A DNA stretch of 64,000 nucleotides from positions 2,666,001 through 2,730,000 of the forward strand of contig CP065590.1 of the NCBI GenBank assembly GCA_016025055.1, written 5' to 3'. Below, piece after piece: positions 15,277 through 35,808 of the stretch (the stretch's first letter is position 1; each line of letters starts with the position of its first letter). The stretch is from Chryseobacterium indologenes. Lineage in GTDB: Bacteria; Bacteroidota; Bacteroidia; Flavobacteriales; Weeksellaceae. A model generated the notes under the pieces. The model was not told the origin of the DNA and did no database searches. It saw only the letters and a list, made by a program, of their open reading frames with translations. A program made the translations under genes and the position numbers.

Positions 15277-18200
15277 ATGAAAAGAAATTTTTCACTCTTC
15301 ATTCTTCTCTTTTCATTGACTCCTGTTTTTGCACAAACAAACCTCAGCACGAATGAGAACTATGTCTACAGCAAAACCTGTATGGATGGAGACTGTAATA
15401 AAAAGTCAGAATCTGTACAGTATTTTGATGGATTGGGAAGACCCATCCAGTCGGTAGCCATCAAAGCGACGCCTCTGGGAAGAGATGTGGTACTGCCTGT
15501 GGAATACGATGCCCAGGGAAGACAGGCTAAAAACTATTTTCCGGTTCCTCAGAACGGAAGTCAGAACGGAGCGCTTTACTCCAATCCATTAGCCAATGCT
15601 CCTTCGGCAGGATATGGCAATGAAAAAAATCTACACCGAAAAAAAATATGATGCCCTCTTTGCCGGGCGCGTCAGCCAGGTGGTACCGGCAGGAAATATA
15701 TGGTCCCAGAGACCTGTTAATATAGGCTATGGAACCAATATTGATAATGAAGTCAGAAAATATACACTAACCACGACATGGGTGGATGGCAGGACGGAAA
15801 CTGCTATTTCCGGGCCTGTTTTTTACCCTGCCAATCAATTGGGGAAAAATACGGTAACCGATCCTGACGGGAATACCGGTACAGAATTTAAAAACGGAAA
15901 AGGAGAAACCATCCTCGTTAGAAAAAATGATGGGGCACAGAATGTAGATACATACTACCTCTATAATGAATACGGACAACTGGTCTATGTCATTCCTCCG
16001 ATGGCAGTAACAGGTACCGCTCCTGATCAGGCCACATTAGATAATCTCTGTTACCAGTATCGCTATGACGGACTGGGAAGGTTGGTAGAGAAAAAAGTTC
16101 CCGGAAAAGGCTGGGAATATATGATCTATGACGGGCAGGACAGACTGGTGGCCACTCAGGATGCCAACTTGAGGGAAAAAGGACAATGGTTGTACACCAA
16201 ATATGATAAGTTCGGAAGAGTAACATTTACCGGGATAAATTCAGGTGGAGGAAGAAGTTCAGAGCAGGCGTATGCTAATATCTTCGGAAGTAATAATGTC
16301 ACCAGAACCTCATCGGTTTTCTTTAACAGAGAAGGGATGGATGTGTATTATGATCCCAATAGTACCTATCCTACAGTGGGGTGGGTAAAGCTGTTATCGG
16401 TCAATTATTATGATACTTATCCTGCCTATAGCTTTAATCCGCCTTTTCCATCTTCAGTGTTTGGAAAACCTGTTATTTCCGATACAGGGAATGCTCCTGT
16501 CAATACGAAGGCAATGCCTACGCTTAGTCTTGTGAAAAATATTGAGGATGACAACTGGACGAAAAATTATGCGTATTATGATGGGAAAGGAAGGTTGATC
16601 AGCACCTATGCCATTAACCATCTGGGCGGATACACCAAAACAGAAACCGAACTGGACTTTGCAGGCGTTACCCAACAGTCTAAAGTATATCATAGAAGAC
16701 TAAGTGGTGATAAAGAAATGGTCATTGCCCAAAGTTTTGATTATGACAACCAAAACAGAGTGCTGAGACATCGTCACCAGGTAGGGCCCCAACCTGTGGA
16801 AATTCTTGCAGAAAATACCTATAATGAGTTGTCACAGATTACCAATAAAAAAGTTGGAAATGGCCTGGAGAGTATGGATTATCAGTATGACATCCGTGGG
16901 GCTCTTACGAAAATTAATGATCCGGCAGCATTGGGAAATAAGTTGTTTGGGTATGAACTGAAATACCAGAACCCGGCCTATACCAATATTGCTCCGGGAA
17001 AGAGCAACGGAAACATCTCGGAAATCGACTGGAAGTCTGCTTCAGATGGGGTGTTGAAAAGGTATTCTTACACCTATGATGCTTTAAACAGGTTAAAGGA
17101 TGCCGTGTATACAGAACCGAATACGACCAACCCGTATAACAATTATTATAACGAATATGCGACCTATGATCTGAACGGAAATATCAAGACCCTGAAAAGG
17201 AATGCTTTCCCGGTAACAGGAACCACCGCCACCCAGGTAGATGACCTCGTATACCAATACACCGGAAACCGCCTGGACAAAGTCATTGAAAATGCATTGA
17301 ACGACACCGGATATGAAGGCGGAAACAATCTGATTGATTACGACCAGAACGGAAACATGATCAATATGAAGGATAAGGGGATTCAGACGATCGGATATAA
17401 TTTTCTCAGTCTGCCTAATCAAACTTCCATTTCCTTGACCAATTCGGCAGGAAAAGTGTCTACCACAAATATTGATCACATCTATAGAGCAGACGGAACA
17501 AAACTTAGAAAAACAACCGTTCAACAGGCTTATATGGGGCTGCCCAGAACGGAGACCACAGATTACCTGGATGGCTTTCAGTATACCAATATAGATGACG
17601 GACAAGGATGCCGTACCTGTAAAACTGAAAGTGCGTATGAAGAACAGGCCTACAGAAAAGTGATCGGCCCTATTATCCCCGGCGGGCCAAAATGGACATT
17701 GAATTTTATCCCTACCGCAGAAGGCTTTTACAGTTTCACGGAAAACCGTTATATTTACCAGTACAAAGACCATTTAGGCAATGTAAGGGTAAGTTTCGCC
17801 AGAAACAGCGCAGGCGCTCCTGAAATTACCGGAACAAACAACTATTATCCATTTGGGCTTAACCATATCGGAGGAGGAAATATGTCTTCATTCTCCAATT
17901 ATCATTCCTATAAATTTGGAGGCAAAGAACTTCAGGAAACAGGGATGTATGACTTTGGAGCCAGAATGTATATGCCTGATCTGGGAAGGTGGGGCGTGAT
18001 AGATCCGTTGGCAGAAACGATGAGAAGATATTCTCCTTATAATTATGCCTTTAATAATCCTATAAGCTTTATAGATCCTGATGGGATGGCTCCATTGAAC
18101 CAATTTAGGATGATGTCAGATTCTCGTCCTGATGCGACTTCCGGTTGGACAAACCCCAATTGGTTGGGAAGAGGATCATACGGTAATATAGATTATGGAG

Positions 18201-18901
18201 AAACTTTAGCACCTGGAGGTGGTGGAGGTGTTTATGAAACTGGTTATGGAACTGTATATGAAGGAAGTTATGCAAGAGATGCTTTTTCATCTTTAATATC
18301 TGGTGCTGATCCAACTCCTCGACCTAAGAAAAATAGGAGCATATGGAATAGAATCGGCCGTTTTTTGGGGTTAGTTGGTAGCAGTAAAAAAGGAAGCATA
18401 GAAGTTGGTCCTGCGGTAGCTATAGATCCTTATGTTCCAATTGTTTCCCCCTATGAATCTATTGGCGTATTCTCTTCTTATATAGCAAGTCAAATAAGAA
18501 CTACAACGGAAACATTCTTTAGTTTTTCAGGAGGATCAAATGATCCGGATAAAGAAACTTTGAATAAGCTTAGACCTGGTGATAGAATAGATTTTAATAA
18601 TATGTTTGAGTATATTATAAATGGTTATGGGAGATCTGCAAAAATTTTAAATGTACGACCAGATGAAATTCAGGCCGGTATTGATGCTATTAGCGTTGCA
18701 ACTCTACCAGATATATTTAAAGGTGATCCGGATAGTTTATTAATTAATGAGGCCCTTTATTTTCCTCAGGTTCATGATACGTCAATATATGTTCCTTATA
18801 ATCAAAATTTTAGTAAAGAGTCAGATAAATTTAATAAAGCTGTCAGAATTATAAATAAAAGAGGTATAGATAATTGGTATAAAAAATATTATGGTAAATA
18901 A
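15277..18901 (+). CDS. Full-length RHS toxin protein, frameshifted
   Basis: About 1207 residues when repaired. Signal peptide MKRNFSLFILLFSLTPVFAQ, then a DUF6443-like N-terminus (YFDGLGRPIQSVAIKATP), many YD repeats and the RHS core (YKDHLGNVRVSFARN to NNPISFIDPDG). A linker (RMMSDSRPDATSGW) and a toxin tip of unknown activity from about NGYGR onward complete it. The frame breaks at an A7 run (15623-15629) where six A are expected. A Sec signal without PAAR or VgrG parts argues for export through the envelope rather than T6SS loading. The tip overlaps its immunity gene by 11 nt. The first ~840 nt of this 3' region recur almost unchanged in cassette 1. Confidence 0.88.
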
Positions 18902-19535
18902 TTTAAAAAATATTACATCATTGGCATTTATTTCACTATTGATGTTTTCTTGTAAAAATCCAGAACAGAAGTCGTTAAATATTTTAGAGTTATCTGATTT
19001 GCAGAATTATAAAATTAAAGAGATAAAATTGAGTGACACTGTTGTAAAAATTTATGGTAAAAACTCAGAATATACTATAGAGGGATTAATGGACCGACGA
19101 AATCATTCTAGACAGAAATGGTGGAACATTAAAAGCAGGATAAATAAAAATTGGTTTGAAATTGAATATATCTTTCTAGATAAACAATTAGAAAATCAAG
19201 TAAAATTATATAATAATGGAATTCTTGATAAGCGAGCAAGTAAATTTTATAATAAATCTATCAACAAAGGAAATAGGCAGTTTGACTTTTACTTTCCTGT
19301 TTCTGAATATATCATTAATAATGTTGAGCTTGATTATGTTATTTCTGATACGATCGCTAGGAAAAAGTTAAGAGAAGGAACTGTAAAATGTGAAAAAATA
19401 AATGATCATTATAGATGTAATATTTTTTTAAAAAAAGGAGAAAATTCTGTTATGGGTGTTGTAACAGCATTTTCAGAATTTAAAGAAAGGGACAGTATAT
19501 CCCTTGCTGCAGATAGAATGTTTATAAAATTTTAG
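18891..19535 (+). CDS. Lipoprotein immunity protein of the full-length RHS toxin (inferred)
   Basis: 214 residues; lipobox LMFSC at about residue 21. No known family recognised. The start ATG lies inside the end of the toxin gene (11-nt overlap), the standard arrangement of a cognate immunity gene. A lipoprotein implies protection in the periplasm or at the membrane face. AT content is higher than in the RHS body. Confidence 0.65.
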   Translation: MVNNLKNITSLAFISLLMFSCKNPEQKSLNILELSDLQNYKIKEIKLSDTVVKIYGKNSEYTIEGLMDRRNHSRQKWWNIKSRINKNWFEIEYIFLDKQLENQVKLYNNGILDKRASKFYNKSINKGNRQFDFYFPVSEYIINNVELDYVISDTIARKKLREGTVKCEKINDHYRCNIFLKKGENSVMGVVTAFSEFKERDSISLAADRMFIKF

Positions 19536-19541
19536 CTCTTC

Positions 19542-19573
19542 CACGGCTAGCGCGAGCGTCCTGGCTCGTGTCC
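19542..19573. repeat. REP-like palindrome R1
   Basis: gctagcgcgagcgtcctggc followed by tcgtgtcc; the cgagc / gctcg arms can pair. Related copies follow most cassettes of the array. Confidence 0.6.
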
Positions 19574-19582
19574 ATTAATAAA

Positions 19583-19611
19583 AAAACCACTGCAAAATGC
19601 AGTGGTTTTTT
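19583..19611 (+). terminator. Terminator closing the full-length RHS/immunity unit
   Basis: aaccactgca / tgcagtggtt perfect stem with AAA loop and T-run. Confidence 0.9.
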
Positions 19612-19618
19612 ACAATAA

Positions 19619-35223: not shown

Positions 35224-35236
35224 TTAAATAAAAGTA

Positions 35237-35262
35237 AAAGCCACTGCATTGCAGTGGCTTTA
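35237..35262 (+). terminator. Terminator of cassette 8
   Basis: aaagccactgca / tgcagtggcttt perfect stem. Confidence 0.85.
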
Positions 35263-35268
35263 TTATAA

Positions 35269-35346
35269 GAAAACCGTTATATCTACCAGTATAAATACCA
35301 TCTTGACAGACAAGTAAAAGAGAATCTTTTACGAAGACTGCGAACC
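35269..35346 (+). repeat. Cassette junction element J10 (right end of array)
   Basis: RHS stub and first hairpin intact. The second hairpin is broken off (actgcgaacc), and no RHS core follows. It marks the right boundary of the array. Confidence 0.8.
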
Positions 35347-35402
35347 TTGTTGCTGCACAAATCCTTTCATGGGGGCAGATGTACTAATAAAGAAAAATAC
35401 AA

Positions 35403-35696
35403 ATGGAAAAAACAATTGAAATTCAGAAAGAAGATATAAAAAAACTCTTATTGACTTTGGTGCAAAAATTAGAAAGGTCTGAGGTTTCTAAATTTTCTTT
35501 TACACAGGATCTATATTGGAATATTCCTGTTGACGAATCATTTAATGTGTATGAAGAGCCTAAACTTACGATCGGAAGCATCACAGAAGATTGGGAGTTT
35601 TTAGAAAAGATATTGGATAATGATAGGGAAGCTCTTAATTTTGATCTCTGTAAGGTATCTGCTATTCTCAAGCTAATAAGCGTTTCAACACTATAA
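35403..35696 (+). CDS. Orphan immunity-like protein
   Basis: 97 residues, acidic, soluble (YWNIPVDESFNVYEEPKLTI, WEFLEKILDNDREALNFDL). It resembles small hypothetical proteins found next to polymorphic toxins, but I cannot name a family. It follows J10 with toxin and core missing, so it is probably the surviving immunity gene of a ninth cassette. Confidence 0.55.
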   Translation: MEKTIEIQKEDIKKLLLTLVQKLERSEVSKFSFTQDLYWNIPVDESFNVYEEPKLTIGSITEDWEFLEKILDNDREALNFDLCKVSAILKLISVSTL

Positions 35697-35808
35697 AAGA
35701 TCAAGAATATCTTACTTCCACTCTTTATCAACAGAACTTGTCAGACCAACCGGTCTCAAATACTAATCCCGTTGAATAGTGATTTTCTTTTTCCCTGTTT
35801 TAATTTCA

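What the first reader, a model, noticed from the sequence alone, without database searches (positions are those of the whole stretch)
15277..35700. Tandem array of displaced RHS toxin/immunity cassettes behind one full-length RHS gene
One complete Sec-signal RHS protein is followed by eight start-deficient or signal-less RHS C-terminal pieces, each with its own immunity gene, plus two decayed cassettes. The sequence shows repeated RHS core segments and different tips. Orphan RHS tips are known in other bacteria and are thought to swap onto the expressed gene by homologous recombination. An array this long (about 16 kb behind the full-length gene) with uniform junctions suggests a dedicated reservoir.
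Basis: partly seen in the sequence, partly recalled or inferred. Interest (0 to 1): 0.85.

Follow-up and report, generated by a model that had tools for sequence, protein, structure and literature searches.

The report
Swappable toxin-tip cassettes behind RHS gene
A Chryseobacterium genome keeps eight apparently silent spare toxin ends, each followed by a likely protective gene, in a row behind one large toxin gene; in a related species two of these pairs are nearly identical although the DNA around them is not, and one of them sits on the main gene there, so the row looks like a shared stock of swappable weapons.

Summary
The array is real. Behind one Sec-signal RHS gene (15277-18901) lie eight start-less RHS core+tip pieces with putative immunity genes, plus two remnants, up to 35700. 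Seven of eight begin at the same core codon after a shared boundary (terminator-like hairpin, about 30 nt of RHS homology, conserved 49-51-nt insert). The 'complete' gene is split over two frames here, as are map and other neighbours, so assembly errors are likely. The orthologous locus of C. phosphatilyticum keeps the order of cassettes 5, 6 and 8 but carries cassette 5 on its full-length gene. dS of the tip+immunity modules of cassettes 5 and 8 (0.00-0.16) is far below background and their own cores (0.64-1.26); exchange tracts run from the tip to the end of the immunity gene. Cassette 6 is vertical (dN/dS 0.20-0.31). In the genus, tips 5 and 8 occur on long and on short frames. This is the known C-terminal-displacement type of RHS locus (Jackson 2009; also Ornithobacterium), here with a mostly fixed 5' edge and an insert found only in Chryseobacterium in two searches. 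None of six mapped exchange edges lies in the insert and arrays without it exist, so a site-specific mechanism is not supported. New variant of a known kind.

The parts
15277..18901 (+). full-length RHS gene (signal-like start and DUF6443 in frame 15229-15651, core and tip F in frame 15596-18901); two frames in this sequence
18891..19535 (+). putative immunity of the main tip, lipoprotein-like start by eye
19668..21370 (+). cassette 2: orphan core+tip (19668-20900) and putative immunity, MORN-like below cut-off (20897-21370)
21490..23228 (+). cassette 3: core-truncated orphan tip (21490-22278) and two putative immunity genes (22283-22777, 22737-23228)
23362..25166 (+). cassette 4: orphan (23362-24486) and putative immunity (24627-25166)
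25239..25708 (+). decayed cassette: boundary remnant 25239-25313 and 74-aa remnant frame 25484-25708
25889..27506 (+). cassette 5: orphan with ADP-ribosyltransferase-like tip (25889-27133) and immunity (27093-27506); on the full-length gene in C. phosphatilyticum
26622..27521 (+). exchanged tract of cassette 5 (toxin domain + immunity; 92-100% per 60-nt block against C. phosphatilyticum, core and pre-tip blocks 67-96%)
27619..29401 (+). cassette 6: orphan with glycine-zipper-like tip below cut-off (27619-28863) and putative membrane immunity in two frames (28875-29153, 29117-29401); vertically inherited
29530..31058 (+). cassette 7: orphan with ADP-ribosyltransferase-like tip (29530-30714) and putative immunity (30717-31058)
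31188..33024 (+). cassette 8: orphan with tip weakly like a colicin pore domain (31188-32384) and immunity in two frames (32372-32728, 32719-33024)
31632..33010 (+). exchanged tract of cassette 8 (92-100% identical per 60-nt block to C. phosphatilyticum)
33155..35049 (+). cassette 9: orphan (33155-34345) and Barstar-family immunity (34336-35049)
35231..35696 (+). terminal boundary without core (35231-35345) and ORF 35403-35696, conserved at the end of the orthologous array
19576..19703 (+). boundary before cassette 2: terminator-like hairpin, about 30 nt RHS homology, insert
21418..21527 (+). boundary before cassette 3
23277..23397 (+). boundary before cassette 4
25800..25924 (+). boundary before cassette 5 (inside the query of the genus search)
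27557..27654 (+). boundary before cassette 6; extragenic palindrome just upstream at 27527-27547
29446..29565 (+). boundary before cassette 7
31113..31217 (+). boundary before cassette 8
33077..33184 (+). boundary before cassette 9

Best explanation
This is an RHS polymorphic-toxin locus with displaced tips, the Chryseobacterium version of C-terminal displacement. One secreted RHS protein carries one toxin tip. Behind it lie units of core piece + tip + immunity + boundary. The units look silent: no conserved start, no signal, a stop in frame just upstream, and a terminator-like hairpin before the core (sequence shown; silence inferred). Incoming DNA recombines through the shared core, and on the far side somewhere between the end of the immunity gene and the next core. 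It either replaces a tip+immunity module in place or inserts a whole unit that pushes the old tip downstream (inferred from tracts and orders). The shared 5' boundary is most simply a founder junction copied with each unit. Modules pass between species and can sit on the main gene or in the array, and at least one vertically inherited cassette has stayed under purifying selection.
For: Collinear orthologous locus in C. phosphatilyticum, flanks 76-88% identical in DNA. Cassette 5 is main tip there and orphan here. dS of tip 5 0.163, immunity 5 0.000, tip 8 0.058, immunity 8 0.079, against 0.64-1.26 for the main N-part and four non-array genes and 0.75 and 0.98 for the cores of the same two cassettes. 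Sharp tract edges at 26622-27521 and 31632-33010. Cassette 6 and the end ORF at background dS, cassette 6 with dN/dS 0.20 and 0.31. Genus searches: 9 of 28 matches to tip 5 and 3 of 10 to tip 8 lie in frames above 1,150 aa, the others in frames of at most 414 aa. Tip 9 has a 62% relative on a long frame in G009 (L121). In G134 a 3,855-nt block 99.84% identical lies in two arrays 0.6 Mb apart, both edges in core sequence. Same principle published: PMC2935791 and PMC3150448 (passages).
Against: The direction (displacement here or activation by deletion there) is not resolved: the core of the C. phosphatilyticum main gene is about equally similar (82-83% by blast) to six of the window units, and the longer cassette-5 match is dominated by the exchanged tract. 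Recent exchange was shown for one species pair; in other species tips 5 and 8 have dS of 0.75 or more (immunities 0.56 or more). Only 14 of 109 orphan tips in a biased sample had a relative of 50% or more on a long frame. Cassette 6 may have spent part of its history on a main gene, so its dN/dS is not proof of selection on silent DNA. The terminator-like hairpin scores only on the minus strand in a pattern scan, and such sites are not in clear excess in the region (14 against 9.3, sd 3.5). No expression or within-culture data. If the frame split of the main gene is real, it may be inactive.
Confidence: 0.82

Rival explanations
1. A dedicated site-specific cassette system: the conserved boundary (palindrome, hairpin, and the insert with two short dyads) is a recombination site that cuts out and inserts whole tip+immunity units, integron-like.
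For: Insert at the same codon in two diverged core types and more conserved (0.80) than its flanks (0.61, 0.49) between them. 12 of 13 exact pattern matches in genome contigs are followed within 150 nt by an RHS core. 62 of 97 orphan units in the loci examined have their 5' edge within 60 nt of the same codon. The dyads stay paired in 91.8% of cells, which no shuffle reached.
Against: 0 of 6 mapped exchange edges lie in the insert, although the two right-hand edges of cassettes 5 and 8 lie next to the boundary, at the end of the immunity gene. Arrays without the insert occur in G151, G099 and G015. Pairs changed on both sides do not exceed shuffles (3 against a mean of 2.1, 177 of 500; cells 10 against 5.3, 30 of 500). 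No recombinase among the 20 array ORFs given to Pfam.
Confidence: 0.07
2. Mainly an immunity archive: orphans persist because their immunity genes protect against relatives; the silent toxin halves are passengers and main-gene swaps are rare accidents.
For: Each of the eight orphans is followed by one or two ORFs. Poole 2011 reports that an orphan CdiI is expressed while the orphan toxin does not appear to be made (passages).
Against: An orphan toxin half is also constrained (tip 6 dN/dS 0.20), and toxin halves are exchanged together with immunity. Tips 5 and 8 have relatives on full-length genes elsewhere.
Confidence: 0.25
3. Passive debris: displaced tips that decay, kept only by drift.
For: Two decayed cassettes, a core-truncated unit and several broken frames in the array.
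Against: Non-array genes are broken in the same way, so assembly errors explain part. Seven of eight orphans keep the core domain, and cassette 6 shows dN/dS 0.20-0.31 over background divergence.
Confidence: 0.1

Closest known systems
Enterobacterial rhs loci with dissociated tips (Jackson 2009, PMC2935791; passages read)
   Same: Constant core, variable tip, strings of dissociated core+tip pieces downstream, tips shared between full-length and dissociated positions, a homologous-recombination circle model.
   Different: There the core fragments are said to be of variable length; here 62 of 97 edges examined sit near one codon, many behind a shared boundary with an insert seen only in Chryseobacterium. 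Module-wise dS tracts are resolved here.
RHS arrays of Ornithobacterium hominis (PMC6421346, PMC13183296; passages read)
   Same: RHS gene with TIGR03696 core and displaced tips (26 orphan tips counted in the 2026 paper); a tip+immunity pair shared with Bergeyella cardium although the main RHS protein differs.
   Different: The passages mention no shared boundary, insert or orthologous-locus dS analysis; different genus.
Orphan cdiA-CT/cdiI and rhs-CT/rhsI arrays (Poole 2011, PMC3150448; passages read)
   Same: Start-less orphan toxin pieces with immunity genes, up to eleven in one locus; an orphan loaded onto the main gene by deletion in one strain.
   Different: CdiA or gammaproteobacterial Rhs; orphan cdiA fragments keep varying amounts of sequence upstream of VENN.
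V. cholerae T6SS immunity arrays (Kirchberger 2017, PMC5361080; passages read)
   Same: Successive displacement at a fixed expression locus with retention of old immunity genes.
   Different: There the old effectors are replaced and immunity genes stay; here toxin tips stay too.

Membership tests
RHS polymorphic-toxin locus with displaced tips | full-length gene with RHS repeats and RHS-associated core domain | tested here: met
   PF05593 and PF20041 on its two frames, TIGR03696; frame-split in this sequence
RHS polymorphic-toxin locus with displaced tips | tip differs from orphans while core is shared | tested here: met
RHS polymorphic-toxin locus with displaced tips | downstream core+tip fragments without start, each with an immunity gene | tested here: met
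   immunity function not tested, Barstar family for cassette 9
RHS polymorphic-toxin locus with displaced tips | same tips found attached in other genomes | tested here: met
   tips 5, 8 and 9
RHS polymorphic-toxin locus with displaced tips | core fragments of variable length (Jackson 2009) | tested here: not met
   62 of 97 edges within 60 nt of one codon, 35 elsewhere; a descriptive rather than essential trait
RHS polymorphic-toxin locus with displaced tips | tips toxic, immunity protective, circular intermediate | not testable with these tools
   needs bench or long-read data
Integron-like site-specific cassette array | crossovers at the boundary site | tested here: not met
   0 of 6 mapped edges in the insert
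Integron-like site-specific cassette array | linked integrase | tested here: inconclusive
   none among 20 array ORFs given to Pfam; most flanking genes and the rest of the genome were not searched for recombinases
T6SS-delivered Rhs effector | N-terminal PAAR/VgrG-linked delivery domain | tested here: inconclusive
   only DUF6443 found on the N-terminal frame; a Sec-type signal is seen by eye, no predictor run; T6SS genes not searched

The most novel reading that the evidence does not exclude
The boundary insert is a functional cassette-end element, specific to Chryseobacterium RHS arrays and maintained by selection. It either marks units for exchange (recombination site or structured DNA) or keeps displaced toxin tips silent, so that these arrays are an organised, interchangeable toxin library rather than leftovers.
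Probability: 0.2. Interest if true: 0.75.

Novelty: new variant of a known kind. Interest (0 to 1): 0.5.

Why it matters
Displaced RHS and CDI tips have been described often and shown to move in some cases. A single orthologous locus in two species here separates, by synonymous divergence, what was inherited (core, cassette 6, end ORF) from what was exchanged (tip+immunity modules 5 and 8), with tract edges, and shows the same module as an orphan in one species and on the full-length gene in the other. That makes 'reservoir or debris' testable in a genus with many sequenced species (173 held here). The conserved boundary insert gives a tag to find and count such arrays.

Tried and rejected
Insert as coding sequence: minor letters by codon position 59/55/87 in the main frame, a weak bias towards third positions, not taken as evidence of coding. 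Insert as structured RNA: no convincing Rfam match (one hit, an unrelated sRNA at E 0.52), consensus fold -1.38 kcal/mol, two-sided changes not above shuffles although the dyads stay paired. Insert as part of one RHS lineage: rejected, since it sits in two core types and does not decay with the flanks. The four-helix-bundle (23S IVP) gene 14852-15232 as part of the system: rejected, the stretch between 14847 and 15327 has no counterpart in C. phosphatilyticum. Order of age by boundary decay: no clear gradient. Terminators: 14 terminator-like sites in 17000-36000 against 9.3 (sd 3.5) in shuffles; at five boundaries the shared hairpin is among them, on the minus strand only, so termination is not shown. 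Fold of tip 5: mean pLDDT 49.8, best Foldseek E 0.009; an ADP-ribosyltransferase fold is taken only as likely, and the R, S-T-S-like and E-x-E positions in A2 are read with recalled motif knowledge. PDB sequence search: nothing for tip 5, one unrelated match at E 0.28 for tip 9. NCBIfam scan of eight tips alone: nothing.

Strain-level comparison within the window's own species was not possible: one genome per species is held. The protein database search that might have helped was switched off, so that query could not be made.
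Full report
Where it is. The window is 2666001-2730000 of a 4.92-Mb single-contig genome. C. phosphatilyticum NZ_PPED02000007.1 is G083 (loci L045, L070, L113, L114).

The observation. The main RHS gene starts at 15277 with a signal-like peptide (by eye) and DUF6443 and ends at 18901. In this sequence it lies in two frames (15229-15651 and 15596-18901); the orthologue in C. phosphatilyticum is one frame of 1242 aa whose first residue aligns at 15277. The same kind of split hits genes without known toxin role: map (two frames), the upstream gene (947 aa in one frame there; 12006-13985 and 14036-14848 here) and the 46590 gene. 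The genome's completeness is 97.24%, against 99-100% for most relatives listed. Assembly indels are the likeliest reason. Behind the main gene come eight orphan frames and two remnants. Seven of the eight, and the main gene, match TIGR03696. The eighth (21490-22278) was not in that scan and lacks most of the core. Repeats of 300 nt occur in up to eight copies.

Contents. Tip families are mostly unnamed. Barstar family for immunity 9 (34336-35049, above the cut-off); glycine zipper for tip 6 and colicin pore for tip 8, both below cut-off; MORN-like for immunity 2 and the first immunity gene of cassette 3, below cut-off. Tips 5 and 7 share the arginine, S-T-S-like and E-x-E positions of ADP-ribosyltransferases (alignment A2; motif recalled). 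A poor model (mean pLDDT 49.8) gives mainly ADP-ribosyltransferase-fold proteins as its best Foldseek matches, among them an Rhs toxin, TreX, none below E 0.001.

The boundary. Before each orphan lies a shared stretch: a hairpin with an A-rich and a T-rich side, about 30 nt like the main gene (YIYQYKDHL; shortened before cassettes 7 and 8), and a 49-51-nt insert, then the core. The hairpin is terminator-like but a pattern scan scores it only on the minus strand, at five boundaries, with no clear excess of such sites in the region (14 against 9.3, sd 3.5). An extragenic palindrome precedes some boundaries. In the own genome the boundary occurs only in this array, apart from three short partial matches at a second RHS locus at 0.75 Mb. 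In the genus 89 of 173 genomes match some part of a 161-nt query, many of them only its RHS-coding parts; four candidates per genome were scored, so counts are lower bounds. The insert itself, aligned in 36 of 40 copies from 14 genomes, is narrower: a search of 320 genomes in 33 genera of the family hits 28 genomes, all of this genus, and in 19 of them the match covers the insert (two candidates per genome scored). An exact-pattern scan of one genome for each of 84,980 species gives 10 stretches with 13 matches, all Chryseobacterium; 12 of the 13 are followed within 150 nt by an RHS core, and the thirteenth (L071) gave no core match. Between boundaries of two core types (9 and 27 copies) the insert keeps 0.80 identity while its flanks fall to 0.61 and 0.49; within the larger type the three values are 0.78, 0.66 and 0.71. 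The insert contains two dyads that pair in 91.8% of cells (no shuffle of 500 as high; slid versions at most 45.5%), but pairs changed on both sides do not exceed shuffles (3, mean 2.1, 177 of 500; cells 10, mean 5.3, 30 of 500). Codon-position bias is weak. Arrays without the insert occur in G151, G099 and G015, with many units starting at the same codon. Over 97 orphan units in loci that also hold a main-type gene, 62 have their 5' edge within 60 nt of that codon; 20 lie 61-200 nt and 9 more than 200 nt downstream, 6 more than 60 nt upstream. Values near +33 to +37 arise where the alignment stops at the insert.

The orthologous locus. Window 11858-54305 is collinear with C. phosphatilyticum contig positions 1-41719, at 76-88% DNA identity in the flanks. 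In C. phosphatilyticum the full-length gene carries the window's tip 5 (92% identity over 203 aligned residues) with its immunity (99%); cassette 6 (78%), cassette 8 (97%, immunity 96%) and the end ORF (74%) follow in the same order. In that comparison the main tip F and tips 2, 3, 4 and 9 have no match there and tip 7 only a 37% match; three further units there (8572-9564, 10140-11339, 15545-16657) have no close tip counterpart here, the first being 35% like tip 8.

Dating by dS. Background: map 0.80, 36787 gene 0.78, main N-part 0.80, upstream gene 0.64, 46590 gene 1.26. Core of cassette 5 0.75, core of cassette 8 0.98. Tip 5 0.163, immunity 5 0.000, tip 8 0.058, immunity 8 0.079. Cassette 6: tip 0.71, immunity 1.07; end ORF 0.75. 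So modules 5 and 8 were exchanged, directly or through a common source, long after the species split, while cassette 6 and the end ORF are vertical. Cassette 6, an orphan here and a non-main 688-aa piece there, has dN/dS of 0.20 (tip) and 0.31 (immunity); part of that may date from time on a main gene. Sliding identity puts the exchanged tracts at about 26622-27521 and 31632-33010, from the tip to the end of the immunity gene; core and boundary blocks are mostly lower. A second part of map gives dS 1.41 for the same pair, which widens the contrast.

Across the genus. Tip 5 has relatives in 25 of 173 genomes (28 matches, 9 of them in frames above 1,200 aa); tip 8 in 9 of 173 (10 matches, 3 in frames above 1,150 aa) (counts include the window's own genome). 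In the other species compared these tips have dS of 0.75 or more and their immunities 0.56 or more, so recent exchange is shown for one pair only. Of 165 distinct tips in the fetched loci (109 orphan, 37 on long frames, 19 cut or intermediate), 7 clusters hold both kinds, 14 of 109 orphan tips have a relative of at least 50% on a long frame and 13 of 37 the reverse; the sample is enriched for tips 5 and 8. Next to map, 28 of 41 loci examined hold an RHS core (one of them only on the other strand, far away) and 16 hold two or more; 39 were taken from among the closest map matches, some of them cut short by contig ends, and two (L045, L062) for their boundaries. In G134 a 3,855-nt block, 99.84% identical, lies in two arrays about 0.6 Mb apart, both edges in core sequence.

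How it works, step by step. Shown: shared cores, start-less orphans, stop in frame before the core, modules exchanged as tip+immunity, the same module in main and orphan position, edges outside the insert (0 of 6 in it). Inferred: silence of orphans; recombination by homology through the core and the region behind the immunity gene; displacement by unit insertion and activation by deletion. Not resolved: direction of the cassette-5 switch; role and origin of the insert; route of DNA transfer; delivery of the main protein.

Known or new. C-terminal displacement with circular intermediates was proposed for enterobacterial rhs (PMC2935791, passages). Orphan arrays are known in CDI and Rhs loci (PMC3150448, passages), and displaced RHS tips in Ornithobacterium (PMC6421346 and PMC13183296, passages). 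Searches for orphan RHS arrays, Chryseobacterium RHS, DUF6443, flavobacterial RHS with type IX secretion, and RHS tip arrays listed no paper that, from its listing or the passages read, describes this boundary or insert; most listed papers were not opened and most subscription papers are not held. The array is a member of a known kind; the mostly fixed edge with an insert seen only in Chryseobacterium is the variant.

Noticed in passing
window 12006-14848, 35772-36607, 46264-51160: Genes that are one frame in C. phosphatilyticum (947-aa upstream gene, map, 1633-aa gene) are split here, pointing to indels in this assembly.
   Followed up: partly
window 14852-15232: A 23S rRNA intervening-sequence (four-helix-bundle) protein gene sits directly upstream of the RHS gene and has no counterpart in the orthologous locus of C. 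phosphatilyticum.
   Followed up: partly
own genome 744000-756000 (L040): A second RHS locus with an 86% identical main gene and a 73% identical upstream gene; one core copy was seen in the fetched stretch, and a partial boundary lies behind it.
   Followed up: partly
window 12006-14848; L113:149-2992: The large gene upstream of the RHS gene has no Pfam match and is found beside RHS genes in C. phosphatilyticum, the own second locus and G113; possible partner gene.
   Followed up: no
window 27527-27547 and genus-wide: GC-rich palindrome GGCGCGAGCGTCTCGCTCGTG: in 67 of 173 genomes of the genus with up to one mismatch, control orientation without matches in the rows shown; 22 of 47 copies (up to 3 substitutions; loci partly overlap) in the fetched loci precede an RHS core within 400 nt.
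   Followed up: partly
L050/L051 and L052/L165 (G134): A 3.9-kb multi-unit block 99.84% identical in two arrays of one chromosome.
   Followed up: partly
window 4215-9820: RND-type efflux set: HlyD-like, AcrB-like and OEP family proteins.
   Followed up: no
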